A stretch of DNA of 64,000 nucleotides from a virus. Positions 45,800 through 64,000 of the stretch are shown piece by piece. Location of the stretch: positions 1-64,000 of the IMG/VR virus record IMGVR_UViG_3300027973_000003, one strand, 5' to 3'. Under the pieces are notes generated by a model. The model ran no database searches and was not told where the DNA came from. It saw only the letters and a program-made list of their open reading frames with translations. Each line of letters begins with the position of its first letter. Position 1 is the stretch's first letter. A program made the translations under genes and the position numbers.

Positions 45800-45824
45800 C
45801 CCCCGCCTAGTGCGGGGGTTTTTT
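45800..45824 (+). terminator. Terminator between convergent blocks
   Basis: CCCCCGC, loop CTAGT, GCGGGGG and TTTTTT on the plus strand. The T-tract overlaps the stop codon of the convergent 2005-aa gene. The minus strand lacks a T-run after the hairpin, so it mainly ends early transcription. Confidence 0.88.
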
Positions 45825-48800
45825 ATTGTCCCTCTGGTACTGGGGCTGCCCGTTTAGCAGAAGGAAGCAAGTAAGGCAGTAACTTCTCATCCATATACTG
45901 ACCACGGTAAGTTAAACCACGTTTCTTAGCATAATTCTTAAGTGAGGAGTCAATCGTATCTGCTTCAATCAAGAACTTCTCCATAGGGTAGCGTTTGTTG
46001 TATTCACGTATTTGATTAAATACAGTCTTTAACTCGCCAGGCCCTTTCTCCGCATCAAATACAACCTCATCTAGACGTTTAAGTATTTCAGCACGTTTAT
46101 TTTGCGCCTCAACAAGTTGTTTTTGCATTGCAAAGTTGTGTTCTTGTATGCGAGCAAGACGGCTAGATTGGAATCCAAGCGTTGTAGCTATTAAGTTAAG
46201 GGTGTTAATTTCTTCTCTCTTAAGCATATCCGCACCACCTTTTGTCTCCGCACCTTCTGTACCAATACGATAAGCAGTTAAAGAACCTTTAAAGAATGCA
46301 GGTACAAGTTTTTCTAACCCACGAATAATACGTCCGTTGTTAAAATCATCAACTACACCAGTTATATTTATACCTGTAGATACACCAGGACCCATATTAG
46401 CAATAATGTTGTTAATAACAGTTTCAGTAAAATTTCTACCTGGCTTAGCTTCTCTAAACCACATGCCATCAAAAGAGGTACGGGAACCAATGTTAATGTC
46501 AGTTAAGGCAGATACAGGACCTTTCTCTAACATATCACTTAATCTGTGCTGGCGACCATCTAAACCCGTTACCATGTTGTTGCCAAAGTATTTAGGTAAG
46601 AAATCATAGCGGAAACGTAAGTTTGAATCTTCTGCAGTTAATGGGTTCTTAGCACGTCGGGCTTTCTTTTCTTCGTCATCGCCACTAAAGAACGCATCAA
46701 TAACGGAGCATATTAAACTATATCCAGGCATACCTACTAATCCGTGGAACATACCGCCCATGACCAAGACGCCAGCTAAACGGTGCATAGCTTCAACACG
46801 TTGTTCTATAGGGGTAGAAAGACGAATAATTTGATAACCATTACGTAGGAAGAAAGACGTCATAAAGACTGCATACATCTTGAACTGCCCAACAGTTTTA
46901 CCAAATGCGTTACGAAGAATACGTGGTCTATTAAAATTATCGTAACGGCCCAGAAGTTCATGTGTTGTATCTACTGCCTTATCCACAGACTTTTGAAAGT
47001 CTTTTGTTTTTGCGTACTCAAGTTCAAACGCCATCATGTAAGTTAATTCTCGGCTCATACGCTCAGAGCCATTAAACATAGCAGTTATACCGTTAAGGCC
47101 TACACGAAGTGCTGTTCCTGGCAAGTTCTTAAAAGAGGAATCTGGGGTACGGTTTCTGTTTGTCAGAACAGAAGTATTGGTAAGAGTAGTTACTTCTCTA
47201 TCTATTGCGGCTTGAAAAGCCCGCTGCAAAATAGGGCTGCTTTTAACCATCTTAGAAGAACCCATAGAAGGCGCAGTAAACTCTACGTCTCCATTAGCTT
47301 GTTCTTGGGTAATGCCCATAGACTTCCAAATTTGAGAGTACTTTGCAAACGCTTTAGCAGATGCACCATAACCGTACTCTGCATTTAAAGAAGGCATAAC
47401 CATAACAGGTACAGAAGCCATCTGAGTAGCAGCAGATGCCGCACTAGTAAGCAGCATAAGGAACGCAAACTGATTAACCCTTGTTGCTATTTTTCCTGGG
47501 TCAGGCGGATTAATTTCTTCTTGCGCACGTTGGCTAAGCTCGTTTACAAACAACTCCATCTTGGCGCGTTCCATAGCGGGCATACCCTCTAAAGAATCTC
47601 TTGCGCGTTGGATTGAAGCTGTAATATCGTTTGCGTATTTTAGTTTAGACAACTGGTTTGCATAACTAGTAGCTGAGTTTTTAAAGTTACGGAAGATATC
47701 AGATGTAAAACCAGTAACATTCTCAGAATGCAAGAACTGCTTACGGAAGCTACGCTCAGGCATAGTCATTAAGTAAGTTTGATAAAGCTGGTCTTTTAGT
47801 TCTTCTTTAAAAGCAGCATTAGCTTCTGCCGCTGTAGCATATTTACTAGAATCAAACTTAGGGTTTACTACTGTCTCGTCAATTGCAGCAAACATTTCTT
47901 GCAACATAACACTGCTATCTTGGAAGTCTTTACGTAAAGAAGTTATGTCATCCCCCGCTGAGAAATTGGGGTCATCTATTTTTAAACCAAGTTCTTTAGA
48001 TCTTTCTAATAAAAATTTATTGCGTTCTCTACCACTTTCAAATAAGTAAAACTCTCGTCCAGTAGGCCCTTTAGCTACACGTAACCAGTATTTGCCGTAG
48101 CGCAAGAATGGGAAATACTCTTCTGGCAATGACGGCAATTCTAGCCCATCATAATCTTCATCTTTTCCACCTTTGGTTTGCTCTTGCATTAAGCGCACTG
48201 ACTTGAGCAACTTAGCTTTAGCGGCATCATCAATCTTTAAAGCGTCAATTTGGTCATTTAATAAAGTGCGGGTGGCAGTGTAATTATCAATGTAGAACTG
48301 GCGAACCATTTCATACATCTCGTGCCCACCCTTTTGCTTACCTAGGGCATCCCACTTTGCATATACTTTGTTAATACTGTTAATACGTCTAGTTCTTTGC
48401 CCTGTATAAGCTGCTTTTTGTTCTTTAGTACTATTTGGATTAGCTATAAGAGCATCATAGTGTTTAACGATAGGGTCTTGGGCAATATAAGTTGCAGCAT
48501 CAGGTGCTTTGGTAGGGCTAACTTTTTCTAAACGGGCAGTATGCATAGCGTCAGCTAAAGTCTGCATACCATTTTTACGTACAAAAGCCCCTAACTTATC
48601 AGCTTTCTTAGCCGAAGCAGCTAACATTCTGGTGCGCATAGCAGACATTTCTTGCTGTAGCTTGTCTGATTCTTCTAAGCCAGGAATCTGATCGCCTTTC
48701 CAGCGCAGTATGTCTACTGTCTGCATATTAAAGAGCATGGCGCTGATAGCCTCATTGCCCATTGCAGCATAATTTAAGTTAAATAAATCTTTATAGTCTT

Positions 48801-51800
48801 CAAAGGTATGACCGTCTGGAATCATACTGCCAACCAAACCTGTAGTAGTTGTTGAGTTCTTAGATAGACGAAGTTTTTCCTCAGTCTTATCAACTTTCTT
48901 GGCCGCAGTGTTTGCTTTCTTAGCTGCGTTAGCTTCTTCAGTTGGGCTTACTTCTTGTTCTTTAATACGTAGCAGCTTATCTGTAATGATGACTAAGTCT
49001 TGTAAAGCGGACTTGTGATCTTCGCCCATATTAAACATGGTGCGTAAACTTTGAACAAAACGAGTAAAGAGTTTGCTAATAACCCCAGGTTTTTCACCAA
49101 AGTACTCACCAGGTGCTAATGCTAAGAATTCTTGCATAGCAGGTGTAGTTAGACCGTAGGCTACAAATTCCTTAATATCTGTAAAGGCATCATAAGGAAT
49201 AGCTAACATTGCATTACTAAGCATGCCTTGTTCTTTAAGTTTGTCGTATAGCATCCCTGCTTCAGCCATTGTTTCTTCTAATTCTTTAACGGCAACACGA
49301 AGTTCGTTAGGAATAGGGCGACCCTCTAACTTAGCTTGTAAATAAGAGTTAATACGTTTAACGGTTGCACCGTGCAAAGCTTCGTGTAAGAACACAGTAT
49401 TGTTAATACCGCCTTCACGCAATAAATAAATTGTATTACGGCCTGGCACATAAAGACCAACTGCACCATTCATACTATTTTGCAAAGACTTGCTAGGTAA
49501 ATCTAAGTGGCTGTCTACAACTACCAGCTTTACTCCATTAAGGTAAGGTGCAAGTCGTTTTGCTAATGCTTTTTCAAATGCATTGCCATTTTTAGTAAGC
49601 CAAGTTAATGCTGCTCTAGCCTGAGTAAACGTTTCAAACTTAGGATTATCTTCTCCGTTTGTGTATTCAACTAATTGAGCACGGGATGGAGCATTTAATT
49701 TTTGTCGTGTTTCAGCACGGTTCTTAGCAAGCTCACGTTCTTGTGGCGTAGCTTTTGCTAGTAAGGCTTTAGCAACGGTACCCGCTTTATTATTACGATG
49801 TGCAGGGCTAGTAGATAGTACATGCGCATCTTCCAGTGCTTGGCGACGGCGCTCATTAAATTCGTTTTGAGCTACCTCAGCAGCATCAATACTTTCAAAC
49901 TGTTCTGGATCAAAAGTTTCATCCATAACCTTCTGAGATTTTTCAGCTAGTCTAATAGCATCTCTAGTAGCTGCTTGTGAACCCTTACGAACTTCGGCTT
50001 TAGCGGCTTGTTGTTCTGGGGTAAGCACCGCCTTAGGTCTGCCAGCTTTCCCTTTAGTTACTTTAGGTATGGCCGATTGTGTAACGTCAGGAGTTACAGT
50101 AGTTTCTTCTGTTTGGTCAGGCGTGATAGTTTCTGAAGAAGGAGGGGTAGGTTGCCCCATAGCCTCCACCATTTGTTTTTGGCGCAGACTTTCAGTAGCT
50201 GCTTTAAATGCTTGTTCTTGGGTTAAGTTGTATTTAGTTTTTAAACTAGCTACTAGTGAACTAAACTCATTTTCTGTTCCAGCTCCAACATTTCCAGGAG
50301 TCCCGCTAGTTCCGCCCAATCCGACAGGTTGAGCTCCAGGAGTTCCTTTGGTAGTTTGTTGTAAGGTAGTTTGTACGTTAGGTGCTGAAACGCTAGACTC
50401 ACGTGCTCTGGTGATAAGTTCAGGTTCATATCCTGCCTCCTTTAAATCTTCTTCTGCCAATCTTCCCGCATCTTCACGGGAAAAGCCACTACTTTCATAA
50501 CGAGTTACAGCATCAAGGTATTCTTTTGTTAATGTATCTTCTTCATTAGTAGTTTGTTCTTTACCAGCAAATCTTTGCTTGACGCTATCTATAAGCGCAC
50601 CAAGCTCTTCTTTATTGGAAGTATTAAAATCTTCTAGTTTTTGTTTTAGCGAACTAATAACCCCAGGTTTTTCTTCAGTGGTTTGTTCTGGCGCTGTTTG
50701 TTGTTTGGGCGGAACAAATCCTTGTTGCTCCATTAATTCACGTGCTGTAGGTACTTTATCGCCTTCAGGTACTTTTTCATTAAATTGTTTGGCTACTCTG
50801 TTAGCAGCGGCACCGCCACCTAACATCATACCGCCCTGTACTACAGTAGCTACCATAGTATCGGCAGCACCTTGTAAAAATTCTTTAATGCCAGCCTCGG
50901 GGTTCATGCCGTAGCCTTTATCTACTGCAAACTGACCAGCGTAGGTTAGTTGTTCACCTGGAATCTCTTTAACTAAAGCTTTTGAAAAGTAACCAGCTAG
51001 TTCTTTAAGTGGTACACCTTTAGCAGCTGCTTTAATACCCTCTAAAGTATTGCCCAATCCAAACTTTTCCCCAATAACTTCAAACGCACCGTATAGTGCG
51101 GATCTACCTGTGCTATCCCCAACATCTAAACCAGCACGGCGACTGTCGTCGTAGGTTTGTCCAAAAGACTGCATGAACATAGTAGTAAGGGGCAACACCT
51201 GGGATTGGATAGCAGTGCCCGATATTAGTGCAGGCAACTGAGTAATAATAGAAGTAGTAGCATCAGAAGTTATTTTTCCTAGATAGCTCTCAGGACCTAC
51301 CTCTCGCAATGCTTTTTGTTCGCTAGATAGCTGACCTAAAACACCTTTTACTCCTTTGTCTTCTACACCTAATACATCTTGGGCAAATTGTGCAGCGCCA
51401 CCCCACCCTTGCATAAAATTAATAGAAGCCTTACGACCAATTTGTTTAAGGTTTTGCCCAAAAGCTTCAACTGCATTCATATCAGGAGTTACGCCGTAGG
51501 CTGCTTTAGTTCTATCAGCGGCAGTAGACATCTTGCTTATGTCGCCTGTGTATAGGCTTGTAGGCATTTCAGTTGGGCCAACTGGGGAATTAAACGGTGT
51601 AATACGTTCTTCTGGACCTAACTTAGTACCAGCCAATATGCTTGGCTTCTCATCTTTTTTAGGTTCTTCTTTAGGTGGCTCTACGGCAACAACTTTTTTT
51701 CCACCAAATTGGGCAGCTAAGTCATCCTCGGGGGCGGCTTGAACAACTTTCTTACCCCCAAACTGTGCGGCTAGATCATCGGATGAATCCGTTTTTACAC

Positions 51801-51840
51801 GCTTCCCACCAAATTGGGATGCCAATTCATCAAGTTCCAT
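45823..51840 (-). CDS. Giant polyvalent internal virion protein with zincin and PLxRFG-like parts
   Basis: 2005 aa. The N-terminus holds three repeats of DxLAxQFGGKxV (residues 4-15, 21-32, 39-50). A HEALH zincin motif lies near residue 818 (VFLHEALHGAT). Hydrophobic segments occur near 1463 (FAFLMLLTSAASAATQMASV) and 1647 (KMYAVFMTSFFLRNGYQ). The composition matches large polyvalent or ejection proteins that enter the host with DNA. Its protease is predicted by motif only. It is the last gene of the late operon. Confidence 0.8.
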   Translation of the reverse strand: MELDELASQFGGKRVKTDSSDDLAAQFGGKKVVQAAPEDDLAAQFGGKKVVAVEPPKEEPKKDEKPSILAGTKLGPEERITPFNSPVGPTEMPTSLYTGDISKMSTAADRTKAAYGVTPDMNAVEAFGQNLKQIGRKASINFMQGWGGAAQFAQDVLGVEDKGVKGVLGQLSSEQKALREVGPESYLGKITSDATTSIITQLPALISGTAIQSQVLPLTTMFMQSFGQTYDDSRRAGLDVGDSTGRSALYGAFEVIGEKFGLGNTLEGIKAAAKGVPLKELAGYFSKALVKEIPGEQLTYAGQFAVDKGYGMNPEAGIKEFLQGAADTMVATVVQGGMMLGGGAAANRVAKQFNEKVPEGDKVPTARELMEQQGFVPPKQQTAPEQTTEEKPGVISSLKQKLEDFNTSNKEELGALIDSVKQRFAGKEQTTNEEDTLTKEYLDAVTRYESSGFSREDAGRLAEEDLKEAGYEPELITRARESSVSAPNVQTTLQQTTKGTPGAQPVGLGGTSGTPGNVGAGTENEFSSLVASLKTKYNLTQEQAFKAATESLRQKQMVEAMGQPTPPSSETITPDQTEETTVTPDVTQSAIPKVTKGKAGRPKAVLTPEQQAAKAEVRKGSQAATRDAIRLAEKSQKVMDETFDPEQFESIDAAEVAQNEFNERRRQALEDAHVLSTSPAHRNNKAGTVAKALLAKATPQERELAKNRAETRQKLNAPSRAQLVEYTNGEDNPKFETFTQARAALTWLTKNGNAFEKALAKRLAPYLNGVKLVVVDSHLDLPSKSLQNSMNGAVGLYVPGRNTIYLLREGGINNTVFLHEALHGATVKRINSYLQAKLEGRPIPNELRVAVKELEETMAEAGMLYDKLKEQGMLSNAMLAIPYDAFTDIKEFVAYGLTTPAMQEFLALAPGEYFGEKPGVISKLFTRFVQSLRTMFNMGEDHKSALQDLVIITDKLLRIKEQEVSPTEEANAAKKANTAAKKVDKTEEKLRLSKNSTTTTGLVGSMIPDGHTFEDYKDLFNLNYAAMGNEAISAMLFNMQTVDILRWKGDQIPGLEESDKLQQEMSAMRTRMLAASAKKADKLGAFVRKNGMQTLADAMHTARLEKVSPTKAPDAATYIAQDPIVKHYDALIANPNSTKEQKAAYTGQRTRRINSINKVYAKWDALGKQKGGHEMYEMVRQFYIDNYTATRTLLNDQIDALKIDDAAKAKLLKSVRLMQEQTKGGKDEDYDGLELPSLPEEYFPFLRYGKYWLRVAKGPTGREFYLFESGRERNKFLLERSKELGLKIDDPNFSAGDDITSLRKDFQDSSVMLQEMFAAIDETVVNPKFDSSKYATAAEANAAFKEELKDQLYQTYLMTMPERSFRKQFLHSENVTGFTSDIFRNFKNSATSYANQLSKLKYANDITASIQRARDSLEGMPAMERAKMELFVNELSQRAQEEINPPDPGKIATRVNQFAFLMLLTSAASAATQMASVPVMVMPSLNAEYGYGASAKAFAKYSQIWKSMGITQEQANGDVEFTAPSMGSSKMVKSSPILQRAFQAAIDREVTTLTNTSVLTNRNRTPDSSFKNLPGTALRVGLNGITAMFNGSERMSRELTYMMAFELEYAKTKDFQKSVDKAVDTTHELLGRYDNFNRPRILRNAFGKTVGQFKMYAVFMTSFFLRNGYQIIRLSTPIEQRVEAMHRLAGVLVMGGMFHGLVGMPGYSLICSVIDAFFSGDDEEKKARRAKNPLTAEDSNLRFRYDFLPKYFGNNMVTGLDGRQHRLSDMLEKGPVSALTDINIGSRTSFDGMWFREAKPGRNFTETVINNIIANMGPGVSTGINITGVVDDFNNGRIIRGLEKLVPAFFKGSLTAYRIGTEGAETKGGADMLKREEINTLNLIATTLGFQSSRLARIQEHNFAMQKQLVEAQNKRAEILKRLDEVVFDAEKGPGELKTVFNQIREYNKRYPMEKFLIEADTIDSSLKNYAKKRGLTYRGQYMDEKLLPYLLPSAKRAAPVPEGQ

Positions 51841-61170: not shown

Positions 61171-61965
61171 TTATGCACCGTTATTCTCATGTTTTGGCTT
61201 AGTGACAAAGCTTTGCCTAACGGCTTCAAACCTTTCATATTCTTCTGGACTAATAACAGCAGCATCAATGTTCTGCCTCATCATTTTTGCATGATCTTCA
61301 AGTTCTTGTATATTGCCCTTATAGCTAAATTCCTTAGTAATTCCCTTGGTATCGTAAAAATCACAAATAAGGTGGTAGCGGTCTTCAGTAGAGTCATTAC
61401 GAATCTGATGCCAGTTATTTACCCATACCCCATAGGCTTTACCCGCTTCCATATGCAAAGTAACACCCTCAGAAATAAACACGCATTTCTTATTAGTAAT
61501 CAATGGGATATGAAACCTAGCCATATATTCGTTGCCATCAGCATCTCTGTGTACTAATGATTTAGCACCAGCCTTTAAACATGTAACACGCACCCGCCTT
61601 GGGTACATACCAGCATCTTCTAACTGCCCAACAATAGACGCAAGTTCTCCCTTACACGCTTGGGTAGGGTTTTTATGTTCCATAGAATGTGCGATATCAA
61701 AGAACTTAAGCGACTTATAGTTGTTGTCATTTTTAGGGAAGTAGACTTCCATCGCCTCTCCCTCATCGTTCTGGAAAAAATCCCAACCATCTCGCCAATC
61801 ACCAGTACGGGAAGTAATAGACCAACCACCAAAGCCATGGTAAGCCACTGTCTCATACTCTTCTCCTTGGATAACTTGTGCACCTAACGGAAACACAAAA
61901 TGCTTTACGTCCTCCACCAATTTGGCGTGGTCAAACTTAATAAAGTCAAACTCTTCGTAAAACAT
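61171..61965 (-). CDS. Aspartyl/asparaginyl hydroxylase-like 2-oxoglutarate oxygenase
   Basis: 264 aa. The iron site is H139-R-D141 and H186 (WVNNWHQIRNDS), and R196 is placed to bind 2-oxoglutarate. Surrounding RVRVTCLKAGAKSLVHRDAD, ARFHIPLITNKKCVFIS and LHMEAGKAYGVWV fit the Asp/Asn beta-hydroxylase fold. It would hydroxylate a protein side chain. Four genes upstream lies a radical SAM maturase and next to it a second oxygenase. Confidence 0.8.
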   Translation of the reverse strand: MFYEEFDFIKFDHAKLVEDVKHFVFPLGAQVIQGEEYETVAYHGFGGWSITSRTGDWRDGWDFFQNDEGEAMEVYFPKNDNNYKSLKFFDIAHSMEHKNPTQACKGELASIVGQLEDAGMYPRRVRVTCLKAGAKSLVHRDADGNEYMARFHIPLITNKKCVFISEGVTLHMEAGKAYGVWVNNWHQIRNDSTEDRYHLICDFYDTKGITKEFSYKGNIQELEDHAKMMRQNIDAAVISPEEYERFEAVRQSFVTKPKHENNGA

Positions 61966-62501
61966 TAAACGTTCCCCGTTTCTACTAGCATATGTAACAC
62001 ATCATAAAAACCATGCTTATCTGTACCTAGGCATAGCAACGTACGCTCCCCACTACCTTGTACATCATGTACATGGTCTATACCTAGAAGATACGCATCC
62101 CCAGGCTTAGCAACAAAAGACCCACGGTTAGCTAGTTCGTCTTGTGAAAAGATGTACCCGTTAGTCTGGTTTTCTATCTGACGCTTAACTGCCTTTGGTT
62201 CTGGGGTATAAAACGTAGTTACATAATTACCAGGTTCTATATAAAAATTAATTGAAGTCTTAACTTCGCTGTCAGTATGCGGAGGAACCGCACCATTAAT
62301 CTTTAGCAGTGATAAATGAAAGTCATTACGGTAACGCAAGGGGATAGTAAACCAGACGCCTCCCCCTGCTAGCTCAGCATCGTAGTACGTTATGACATCG
62401 CCGTAGGAGATTTGTTTTCCCCCTTGGGCGTAATCAAGATTGCTGAACTGTTTCTTGAGTATTCTGAACACGGCTTTCTTTCCATATTTTGTACTCAGCA
62501 A
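61965..62501 (-). CDS. Second 2-oxoglutarate/Fe(II) oxygenase-like protein
   Basis: 178 aa. INGAVPPHTDSEVKTSINFY has H75-T-D77, DHVHDV holds H143 and H145, and GERTLL has R153, which together match the HxD...H...R facial triad plus 2-oxoglutarate Arg. The jelly-roll strands (TSINFYIEPGNYVTTFYTPE) fit. The start overlaps the upstream gene by 68 bases; a GTG at 62471 is possible. It overlaps the next oxygenase by one base. Confidence 0.7.
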   Translation of the reverse strand: MLSTKYGKKAVFRILKKQFSNLDYAQGGKQISYGDVITYYDAELAGGGVWFTIPLRYRNDFHLSLLKINGAVPPHTDSEVKTSINFYIEPGNYVTTFYTPEPKAVKRQIENQTNGYIFSQDELANRGSFVAKPGDAYLLGIDHVHDVQGSGERTLLCLGTDKHGFYDVLHMLVETGNV

Positions 62502-62823
62502 TAATTGGACAGCTATATTCCCAGTTAATACCAGTATGCGGGTTCTTATTAGCAGCTGCCCAGTGCTTGTCCTGTATGTACTCTAAGATTGGAATACCGT
62601 CATGGAAAATCTTTTCTAGGATGTCAGCATAGTCATTTAGCATCTGGAACATGCGTTCTTTATCCTGACCTTCAAGCCTAAGAATGTCTTTGTTCATCTG
62701 GTTATCAAAGTAATGAACAACCAATTCACGATACTTTTCTACTTCTTCTGGCGACACATTTGCATAAACCGTTGGTGTTGGAAGCGGTTCTTCAACGTAG
62801 GGTTGATTTAAATTTTCATCCAT
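62434..62823 (-). CDS. Hypothetical protein of the tail-modification cassette
   Basis: 129 aa. Helical, with SPEEVEKYRELVVHYFDNQM, ILEKIFHDGIPILEYIQD and a Trp/Tyr-rich segment (GINWEYSCPIIAEYKIWKES). It overlaps genes on both sides. It could be an adaptor binding the substrate or enzymes around it; no domain is known to me. Confidence 0.6.
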   Translation of the reverse strand: MDENLNQPYVEEPLPTPTVYANVSPEEVEKYRELVVHYFDNQMNKDILRLEGQDKERMFQMLNDYADILEKIFHDGIPILEYIQDKHWAAANKNPHTGINWEYSCPIIAEYKIWKESRVQNTQETVQQS

Positions 62824-63680
62824 TTTTTCACTCCTTCAATACTAAATTTATTAACAGAAACAATTGCAGAAGCAGTCCAATGGCTCATCCAAAATAACGC
62901 CCACATACCCCATAAAGTCAAGATACGGTGTCCACGGCGATGTGGAATGTAATCAATAAGGCGACTAATAGGTTTACCAATAGCCATAAGAACTCGACCA
63001 CGCAGATTGTCTTGAGGGCGAGCACCCATTAAATACGCCATATGCTCTGACCAAGGAATGCCAATACGTAAGGCCATAGCAGTAATAGCTTCTTTTTGTG
63101 CCATAGCACGTTGCTCTTTAGGTAGCCATAGGAAGCAATCTGGTCCTTTGCCATCCATCCAAGCAGTCACGGTTCTAGCCCAGCGAATATACCCACGATA
63201 CACACGACGGTCATTTTGACGCAACCACTTGCCATACTTCTGGTCAGCTACCCAAACATTAGGGTCCATATAGCCAAACTCATAGAGCTTAGCGCAGATA
63301 ATCTTAGAGCAGTTGCAAGCGCAGTTACAGTTATAAGAAACTGGGGAAATACTGCAGTTGTAAGTACAGGCGCAGTTAGTGCCGTCTTGTAGATAGGCTT
63401 GTGGTTGGCAGTTAGCACAGTTAATAGCTGAACAGTTTGTACAGTTAGTGCATTGAATGTTGCCGCAGTTACAGTTATAGGCGCAGTTACCGTTATTGCA
63501 ATTACCTTGCGTAGTATTCTGAAAATACGATTTGCTATAGAACGCACCCATATTAGGCGAGCTAGCTGGTGTTAAAAGCAACCCATTTAGAAAAGACAAG
63601 TCGTCAGTAAAGGTGGCGGACTGCCCAATCTCTACGCTAACCGCGCCAATACTTATTGGACCTGATGCTGGTAATGTCAT
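62808..63680 (-). CDS. Cys/Asn-rich tail-type protein, candidate substrate of the radical SAM maturase
   Basis: 290 aa. Residues 1-50 (MTLPASGPISIGAVSVEIGQ, LNGLLLTPASSPNMGAFYSK) are a phage tail N-terminal type. Residues 61-129 hold 17 cysteines, most as Asn-Cys (GNCAYNCNCGN, CTNCTNCSAINCANC, YNCNCACNCSK). The remaining 160 residues form a conserved phage domain (YGKWLRQNDRRVYRGYIRWA) with a hydrophobic C-terminus. It overlaps the radical SAM gene by four bases. Substrate role is inferred from composition and coupling. Confidence 0.75.
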   Translation of the reverse strand: MTLPASGPISIGAVSVEIGQSATFTDDLSFLNGLLLTPASSPNMGAFYSKSYFQNTTQGNCNNGNCAYNCNCGNIQCTNCTNCSAINCANCQPQAYLQDGTNCACTYNCSISPVSYNCNCACNCSKIICAKLYEFGYMDPNVWVADQKYGKWLRQNDRRVYRGYIRWARTVTAWMDGKGPDCFLWLPKEQRAMAQKEAITAMALRIGIPWSEHMAYLMGARPQDNLRGRVLMAIGKPISRLIDYIPHRRGHRILTLWGMWALFWMSHWTASAIVSVNKFSIEGVKKWMKI

Positions 63681-64000
63681 GCTGCTACCCTCGATTTTCC
63701 ATAAACTTCAACATTATCAATTTTCTCAACCACTTCACTGACTACCTTAATAGGGATAATCCGTTTAACTGGTTTCTCTTCGTGTTTTAAAACTGTACCA
63801 AAAACGTCTTGCCTTTCAGGAGGCAAACTATCATTCTTTATTAAAGTCGGTATATACCCAGTCATTTTATGAATTGACGCAGCAAACAGCGTTACGTTGT
63901 CTGAATACGCATTTGCACAGGAGACTTCCCAGAACTTATTATCTAAGAACATACAAGCGCCTTTGCATAAATGCAGAACTGGACACTTAGGGCAAGCGTC
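63677..64000 (-). CDS. Radical SAM/SPASM-type peptide maturase, partial (C-terminus only)
   Basis: The frame continues past the internal Met at 63952 to the window end. It reads DACPKCPVLHLCKGACMFLD then KFWEVSCANAYSDN, i.e. CxxCx5CxxxC with a later Cys: the second half of a SPASM auxiliary iron-sulfur cluster domain. The remaining 90 residues are a C-terminal extension. The catalytic CxxxCxxC half lies outside the window. Such enzymes form thioethers or other cross-links in RiPP precursors; role here inferred. Confidence 0.8.
   Translation of the reverse strand, partial: DACPKCPVLHLCKGACMFLDNKFWEVSCANAYSDNVTLFAASIHKMTGYIPTLIKNDSLPPERQDVFGTVLKHEEKPVKRIIPIKVVSEVVEKIDNVEVYGKSRVAA

What the first reader, a model, noticed from the sequence alone, without database searches (positions are those of the whole stretch)
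61171..64000. Phage RiPP-like cassette: SPASM radical SAM enzyme, Cys/Asn-rich virion protein and two 2-oxoglutarate oxygenases
Seen: the minus-strand order is radical SAM/SPASM C-terminus, Cys-rich tail-type protein (17 Cys in 69 residues), a 129-aa helper, then two proteins with HxD...H...R oxygenase triads, all with overlapping or nearly touching frames. Known: SPASM enzymes install Cys-linked cross-links in RiPP precursors; Asp/Asn hydroxylases modify protein side chains. Inferred: the phage matures a fibre or tail protein by installing thioether cross-links and hydroxyls, which would be a new use of RiPP chemistry in a virion.
Basis: partly seen in the sequence, partly recalled or inferred. 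Interest (0 to 1): 0.9.

Follow-up and report, generated by a model that had tools for sequence, protein, structure and literature searches.

The report
Radical-enzyme-matured phage tail-fibre tip
Many freshwater phages and prophages carry, beside a tail-fibre-like gene whose protein ends in an asparagine-cysteine repeat, a dedicated radical enzyme and usually hydroxylases, which suggests they chemically cross-link or harden the fibre tip in a way not described for any virus in the papers I could search.

Summary
Beyond base 64,000 the radical SAM gene is complete (476 aa, CxxxCxxC core, canonical seven-Cys SPASM domain). Its neighbour is the Cys/Asn-rich protein (17 Cys in 69 residues), followed by a helper and two 2-oxoglutarate oxygenases. 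The pair is strongly conserved. Essentially every one of 80 viral relatives has the Asn-Cys protein beside the enzyme. Of 55 relatives with the same C-terminal domain and enough flank, 55, 54 and 55 have helper, oxygenase 1 and oxygenase 2. More distant relatives, mostly in prophages, place the enzyme beside fibre-like proteins whose extreme C-terminus is an (Asn-Cys)n run, or whose run directly precedes a self-cleaving Hint or S74 domain. In a sample drawn on the DNA motif alone, 22 of 24 genuine Asn-Cys fibres have the enzyme on their contig; none of 89 out-of-frame controls has it in the stretch examined. I conclude that this is a phage system in which a SPASM enzyme modifies the Asn-Cys tip of a tail fibre, usually with 2OG oxygenases, and that detachable C-terminal domains expose the tip. 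That thioether cross-links and Asn hydroxylation are the products is inferred. I found no published account of it.

The parts
63677..64000 (-). C-terminal part of a radical SAM/SPASM enzyme (476 aa; the gene runs on to position 65107 of the same virus record)
   Evidence: Pfam Radical_SAM E 5.5e-10; phrog_1802 E 8.5e-61; TIGR04085 SPASM 33.5 bits vs cutoff 27; CxxxCxxC and seven SPASM Cys
62808..63680 (-). 290-aa Asn/Cys-rich tail-fibre-like protein, proposed substrate of the radical SAM enzyme
   Evidence: present next to the enzyme in essentially all relatives; 4-base overlap with the enzyme gene
63294..63500 (-). Asn-Cys core (residues 61-129; 17 Cys), proposed site of modification
   Evidence: Cys and Asn among the invariant columns; AlphaFold confidence 27-35 for most of the core, i.e. 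no fold predicted for the unmodified sequence
62811..63305 (-). C-terminal 'KIIC' helical domain, exchangeable with S74, Hint or no domain in relatives
   Evidence: pLDDT about 85, no match in the PDB fold search; also ends cyanophage fibres after poly-Pro/poly-Arg or poly-Gly
62434..62823 (-). 129-aa helper of unknown fold, overlaps the Asn-Cys gene
   Evidence: in 55 of 55 KIIC-type loci with enough flank, 0 of 9 other architectures
61965..62501 (-). oxygenase 1: Fe(II)/2OG-type double-stranded beta-helix protein (likely true start GTG at 62471)
   Evidence: invariant HxD..H..R; pLDDT 91.6; fold matches include JmjC ribosomal hydroxylases NO66/MINA53 and cupins
61171..61965 (-). oxygenase 2: aspartyl/asparaginyl beta-hydroxylase family (PF05118)
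   Evidence: PF05118 43.0 bits vs cutoff 22.6; PDB beta-hydroxylase 7v4f E 3.3e-6 and proline hydroxylase 4p7w E 1.2e-4

Best explanation
A fibre-tip maturation cassette. The phage makes a small tail-fibre-like protein whose C-terminal core is a run of Asn-Cys repeats. The radical SAM/SPASM enzyme encoded next to it oxidatively modifies the cysteines of this core, most likely by linking Cys sulphur to a carbon of a neighbouring Asn or other residue (thioether, -2 Da each). Two Fe(II)/2OG oxygenases add hydroxyl groups (+16 Da each), the AspH-type one most plausibly on Asn/Asp side chains. A C-terminal domain (KIIC here; S74 or Hint in relatives) then finishes the fibre; in the Hint and S74 cases it is expected to cut itself off directly after the Asn-Cys run, so that the modified run becomes the exposed tip. 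Shown here: the genes, domains and motifs, the two-way co-occurrence, and the C-terminal placement. Inferred: that the core is the substrate, the product chemistry, removal of the KIIC domain, presence in virions, and a role in adsorption or tip stability.
For: (1) Forward co-occurrence: essentially all of 80 viral rSAM loci have an Asn-Cys ORF immediately adjacent. Of 74 relatives in bacterial genomes 55 have one nearby, and most of the rest are truncated contigs or a divergent low-scoring group outside phage tail regions. (2) Reverse co-occurrence, from DNA motif alone: 17 of 31 in-frame Asn-Cys ORFs vs 0 of 89 out-of-frame hits have the enzyme in the stretch (Fisher p 1.4e-12); a whole-contig search of the seven edge cases raises genuine fibres to 22 of 24. 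(3) The run is joined to several unrelated fibre N-termini, always at the C-terminus or before a removable domain: NCNCNCDCCC-end (L177), NCDCNCNCSC-FPAGT Hint in cultured Achromobacter phages JWF and 2-1, CDCLF-SDDRLKD S74 (L036), core + Hint (L350). (4) The enzyme's best curated relatives are Cys-thioether makers or Cys-rich peptide maturases: PapB 2.4e-22, quinohemoprotein maturase 2.1e-20, CcpM 1.9e-19. (5) Helper, oxygenase 1 and oxygenase 2 in 55, 54 and 55 of 55 KIIC loci; other 2OG oxygenase families in 36 of 52 loci with a C-terminal run. (6) The loci sit in tail/lysis regions.
Against: No biochemical or virion data. The Cys-rich protein itself has no Pfam, PHROG or NCBIfam hit, so 'fibre' rests on context and on homologues with S74 or gpJ neighbours. 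All scores to thioether-forming families are far below their equivalog cutoffs (PapB 79.6 vs 340), so the product cannot be read from sequence. No RiPP recognition domain was found. Oxygenases 1 and 2 are absent from the S74, Hint and short architectures (0 of 9), so they may act on the KIIC domain or helper rather than on the Asn-Cys core. Oxygen-sensitive SPASM clusters beside O2-dependent hydroxylases is an uneasy pairing. Many viral contigs are near duplicates, so counts exceed independent events.
Confidence: 0.7

Rival explanations
1. Two independent modules: the radical SAM enzyme modifies the Asn-Cys core, while helper and oxygenases serve the KIIC C-terminal domain (for example its folding, hydroxylation or release) and never touch the core.
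For: Helper, oxygenase 1 and oxygenase 2 track the KIIC domain closely (55, 54, 55 of 55) and are absent in 9 of 9 other architectures that keep enzyme and core. Cyanophage fibres keep the KIIC domain, with poly-Pro/poly-Arg or poly-Gly in place of the Asn-Cys core and a small ORF next to it, and have no detected rSAM in the held stretch.
Against: Other 2OG oxygenase families lie near the enzyme in 36 of 52 loci that have no KIIC domain, typically between fibre and enzyme, and in some S74 or short-type loci. The cyanophage loci have no detectable oxygenase 1 or 2.
Confidence: 0.35
2. The Asn-Cys run is a metal-binding or disulphide-bonded tip (like the HxH iron column of the T4 gp37 tip), and the radical SAM enzyme acts on something else.
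For: Alternating Cys puts all thiols on one face of a strand, suited to metal binding in a trimer (inference). The spacer is mostly Asn but also Ala or Asp, so only the Cys spacing is strict.
Against: Near-perfect two-way co-occurrence of run and enzyme across unrelated fibres is unexplained if the enzyme has another substrate; the enzyme's relatives act on Cys-rich peptides.
Confidence: 0.12
3. The enzyme is an anaerobic sulfatase maturase-like oxidase that turns the cysteines into formylglycine, giving an aldehyde-bearing sticky tip.
For: Deposited annotation of the JWF homologue is 'anaerobic sulfatase-maturating enzyme'; anSME structures align over the whole SPASM region.
Against: The catalytic Asp of anSME (the Cys-Asp pair in VYPCDFYV of the 4k36/4k37 chains; its role is own knowledge) aligns with an invariant Gln, C332-Q333, in this family; NCBIfam anSME 56.5 bits vs cutoff 349; no CxPxR substrate motif in the core.
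Confidence: 0.06
4. Another radical modification of the core, such as epimerisation to D-residues as in proteusins, giving a regular helix from alternating residues.
For: Strict two-residue period of the run, and hydroxylases that accompany epimerases in proteusins (own knowledge of polytheonamide); weak match to the epimerase YydG chains.
Against: A full seven-Cys SPASM domain is typical of dehydrogenating cross-linkers, whereas PoyD-type epimerases lack it (own knowledge); better matches are to Cys-linking enzymes.
Confidence: 0.08

Closest known systems
PapB/freyrasin and other ranthipeptide maturases (radical SAM/SPASM)
   Same: Radical SAM core plus SPASM clusters; Cys-rich substrate encoded next to the enzyme; best curated profile match
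   Different: PapB modifies a short leader-bearing peptide through CX3D/E motifs and an RRE domain (PMC9413430). Here the substrate is a 90-620 aa fibre-like protein with a C-terminal (NC)n run, no leader or RRE found, and accessory 2OG oxygenases are usual
Quinohemoprotein amine dehydrogenase maturase (QhpD)
   Same: SPASM enzyme whose family makes Cys-to-Asp/Glu thioethers in a subunit of a larger protein (own knowledge); second profile match 2.1e-20 class
   Different: Different substrate, far below the equivalog cutoff (72.8 vs 453)
PHROG 1802 'radical SAM domain-containing protein' (Achromobacter phages JWF, 2-1)
   Same: Same enzyme family (8.5e-61); the JWF and 2-1 copies are also next to a fibre ending in NC repeats plus a Hint domain
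   Different: Family known only by domain; no link to the fibre is noted in the record annotations
S74 intramolecular chaperone of endosialidase-type tail spikes
   Same: C-terminal domain of a trimeric fibre that removes itself after folding; present after the Asn-Cys core in L036 and L076
   Different: No radical or 2OG modification of the fibre is known there (own knowledge)
Proteusins (polytheonamide)
   Same: Radical SAM enzymes and a 2OG hydroxylase act together on an Asn-rich repetitive core (own knowledge)
   Different: Secreted peptide toxin, epimerisation chemistry, no SPASM in the epimerase, not part of a virion

Membership tests
Radical SAM superfamily, SPASM subfamily | CxxxCxxC cluster motif and seven-Cys SPASM motif | tested here: met
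   all present and invariant in 16 diverse members; TIGR04085 above cutoff
Known SPASM RiPP maturase equivalogs (PapB, CcpM, SCIFF, QhpD, others) | Score above the curated equivalog cutoff | tested here: not met
   best 79.6 bits vs 340
Ranthipeptides/sactipeptides | Cys thioether to beta/gamma or alpha carbon in the product | not testable with these tools
   needs MS/MS
RiPPs in general | Short precursor peptide with cleavable N-terminal leader and RRE recognition | tested here: not met
   substrate is a 90-620 aa fibre-like protein; run at the C-terminus; no RRE family hit
Anaerobic sulfatase-maturating enzymes | Catalytic Asp after the SPASM Cys and score above cutoff | tested here: not met
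   Asp replaced by invariant Gln333; 56.5 bits vs 349
Aspartyl/asparaginyl beta-hydroxylase (PF05118), oxygenase 2 | Score above gathering cutoff and HxD..H..R | tested here: met
   43.0 vs 22.6 bits; residues invariant in 26
Fe(II)/2OG oxygenases, oxygenase 1 | Double-stranded beta-helix fold with HxD...H and Arg | tested here: met
   confident DSBH model; invariant residues. No Pfam hit, so no named family; best fold TM-scores are moderate (about 0.47)
Phage tail fibre | Found in virion or homologous to a known fibre | tested here: inconclusive
   window protein has no family hit; relatives adjoin gpJ (L159) or carry S74 (L036) or T4 gp36-like/shufflon N-termini (P0001)
Hint autoprocessing domain in relatives | Pfam Hint/Hom_end_hint above cutoff with Cys at the junction | tested here: met
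   Hom_end_hint 47.5 vs 32.1 bits in JWF, starting at the last Cys of the NC run; below cutoff in L213

The most novel reading that the evidence does not exclude
A widespread, previously unrecognised virion-maturation pathway: phages build a covalently cross-linked, hydroxylated (Asn-Cys)n tip on their tail fibres with a dedicated SPASM enzyme and 2OG oxygenases, and expose it with self-cleaving C-terminal domains. It would be a first use of RiPP-type chemistry in a virus particle.
Probability: 0.55. Interest if true: 0.93.

Novelty: new variant of a known kind. Interest (0 to 1): 0.86.

Why it matters
Radical SAM genes in phages are usually listed as auxiliary metabolic genes or sulfatase maturases. 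For this family (183 hits in one viral scan, plus prophage-like loci in Limnohabitans, Polynucleobacter, Paraburkholderia and others) they instead appear to belong to the tail. If the tip is cross-linked, it would change how host recognition by abundant freshwater phages is understood, reveal a C-terminally placed and portable modification tag that different fibres have acquired, and give a new source of peptide cross-linking enzymes. A cultured phage (Achromobacter phage JWF) makes it directly testable.

Tried and rejected
Sulfatase-maturase reading: rejected on the Asp-to-Gln change and score. Plain metabolic-gene reading: rejected because the loci lie in tail/lysis regions and track the fibre tip. 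Chance Cys-rich ORF or wrong frame: rejected (17 Cys vs next best 8 in the window, and conserved in dozens of relatives). A one-unit reading of all five genes: modified, because oxygenases and helper track the KIIC domain. Fold search for the KIIC domain: no match (the input was the full-length, partly low-confidence model). PHROG, Pfam and NCBIfam for the Cys-rich protein and helper: no hit. The Roseobacter CRP-738 match to oxygenase 1 lies among early replication genes, so it is a homologue outside the cassette. Nine searches of the held open-access library gave no paper linking radical SAM/SPASM to phage fibres, though subscription journals and preprints are mostly not held. Reports of radical SAM genes in pelagiphage and T4-like environmental genomes do not mention a fibre partner in the passages read.
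Full report
What is there. The window is bases 1-64000 of a 66,664-bp virus record. The phage has a portal, a large terminase, a DNA-ejection-type protein and a holin/endolysin block. The cassette lies between two tail-type genes (272 and 240 aa, just beyond the window) and the holin/endolysin genes, all on the minus strand. Fetching the rest of the record completes the radical SAM gene: 476 aa, core C74NYTC78DYC81, and the full SPASM pattern C313...G327x4C332...C372x2C375x5C381x3C385...C397. The Cys-rich protein (62808-63680) has an N-terminal fibre-like region, a core with 17 Cys in 69 residues, and a helical C-terminal domain called KIIC here after its first residues. A 129-aa helper, oxygenase 1 (DSBH fold, HxD..H..R) and oxygenase 2 (AspH family) follow.

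Conservation. The radical SAM protein found 183 relatives in IMG/VR; the best 80 (63-93% identical) were read. Essentially all of them encode the Asn-Cys protein immediately beside the enzyme. In loci with the KIIC domain and at least 5 kb of flank, helper, oxygenase 1 and oxygenase 2 are present in 55, 54 and 55 of 55. Contigs range from a few kb to 357 kb, so several phage groups share the cassette, although some contigs are near duplicates. A separate scan with the KIIC domain found the enzyme in 70 of 71 newly fetched loci, the exception being cut off at a contig end.

Architectures. The same Asn-Cys core is followed by different C-terminal ends: KIIC domain (window and most relatives); S74 intramolecular chaperone (L036, L076); a short end CACACW-stop (L072, L073, L080-L082, L085); or a Hint domain (L350). 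More distant relatives of the enzyme, mostly in bacterial genomes (Limnohabitans, Polynucleobacter, Paraburkholderia, Rhodospirillaceae and others), lie next to fibre-like proteins that simply end in the run, such as ...RYNCNCDCNCC...TNCNCNCGC...NCNCNCDCCC, or carry it directly before a Hint domain, as in the cultured Achromobacter phages JWF and 2-1 (NCDCNCNCSC-FPAGT). The N-terminal parts of these fibres fall into eight single-linkage groups, two large and six single, so the run looks like a portable tag. The residue between cysteines is Asn in 378 of 614 CxC cases, then Ala and Asp. In a tree of 147 enzymes, Hint ends occur in at least two separate clades and S74 ends in two, and most enzymes without a run form groups apart.

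Reverse test. Contigs were sampled only by a DNA pattern for NCNC[N/D]C (120 stretches). Of 89 out-of-frame matches none has the enzyme in the stretch; of 31 in-frame matches 17 do (Fisher p 1.4e-12). Of the other 14, I judged seven to be spurious short frames. The other seven lay at stretch edges or lacked flank, and searching their whole contigs found the enzyme in five. That makes 22 of 24 genuine cases; the two left are a 7.7-kb fragment (L295) and one weak case (L238).

Two modules. The enzyme and the Asn-Cys core occur together in every architecture. Helper and oxygenases 1 and 2 occur only with the KIIC domain (0 of 9 others). Yet other 2OG oxygenase families (phrog_81/PF13759 and PF13640) lie near the enzyme, typically between fibre and enzyme, in 36 of 52 loci with a C-terminal run, and near it in some S74 or short-type loci. 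Oxygenases have therefore been recruited repeatedly, which supports a shared purpose, but oxygenases 1 and 2 may act on the KIIC domain. In cyanophages the KIIC domain ends fibres whose preceding stretch is about 33 prolines plus arginines, or poly-Gly, without a detected enzyme in the held stretch. The KIIC domain thus looks like a general closing domain for fibres with a low-complexity tip.

Mechanism. Shown: the enzyme class, the two-way linkage, the C-terminal position of the run, and self-processing domains placed exactly at the end of the run. Inferred: the enzyme modifies the run. Its closest curated relatives are thioether makers, and PapB accepts Cys-Xn-Asp with n from 0 to 6 (PMC9413430), so dense Cys/Asn/Asp repeats are plausible substrates. 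AlphaFold finds no fold for the unmodified core (confidence about 30), which is compatible with, but does not prove, a need for covalent cross-links. AspH-type oxygenase 2 suggests Asn/Asp hydroxylation, a natural fit to an Asn-rich core. A sulfatase-maturase reaction is unlikely because the catalytic Asp is an invariant Gln.

Novelty. I found no paper on this among nine searches of the held library, and the record annotations read 'radical SAM domain-containing protein' or 'anaerobic sulfatase-maturating enzyme'. The chemistry class is known; its use on a virion fibre tip, with a C-terminal tag in place of a leader, is a new variant, and would be a new kind of virion maturation if confirmed.

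Noticed in passing
L004 6669-8519; L358-L364: Cyanophage fibre-like proteins end with a poly-Pro (about 33) plus poly-Arg run, or poly-Gly, then the KIIC domain, with a small ORF next to it: a second kind of homopolymer fibre tip using the same closing domain.
   Followed up: partly
L203, L205, L206, L208, L210, L211, L214, L215, L224: Divergent relatives of the enzyme (about 300-350 bits) in genomes such as Variovorax, Ramlibacter and Sulfuritalea without any Asn-Cys fibre; some neighbour an ATP-grasp-like 345-aa ORF and a 770-aa ORF, a possible cellular origin of the enzyme.
   Followed up: no
L161 5128-5955, L177 6575-7390, L204 7132-7992, L003 8231-8953: Two further unannotated families (about 270 aa and about 240 aa) lie between the Asn-Cys fibre and the enzyme in most prophage-type cassettes; function unknown, possibly chaperones or decoration proteins.
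   Followed up: partly
window 62471: Oxygenase 1 probably starts at GTG 62471 with an upstream GGAAAG, not at TTG 62501, judging by where its relatives start.
   Followed up: yes
window 45823-51840: A 2005-aa protein resembling DarB-like antirestriction/large ejected virion proteins (phrog_10089 E 2.4e-53).
   Followed up: no
L002 7941-8663 (record positions 65940-66662): 240-aa protein made of repeats of the type ET(I/L)T(F/L)TDVYA; partly like pentapeptide-repeat models below cutoff, probably structural.
   Followed up: no
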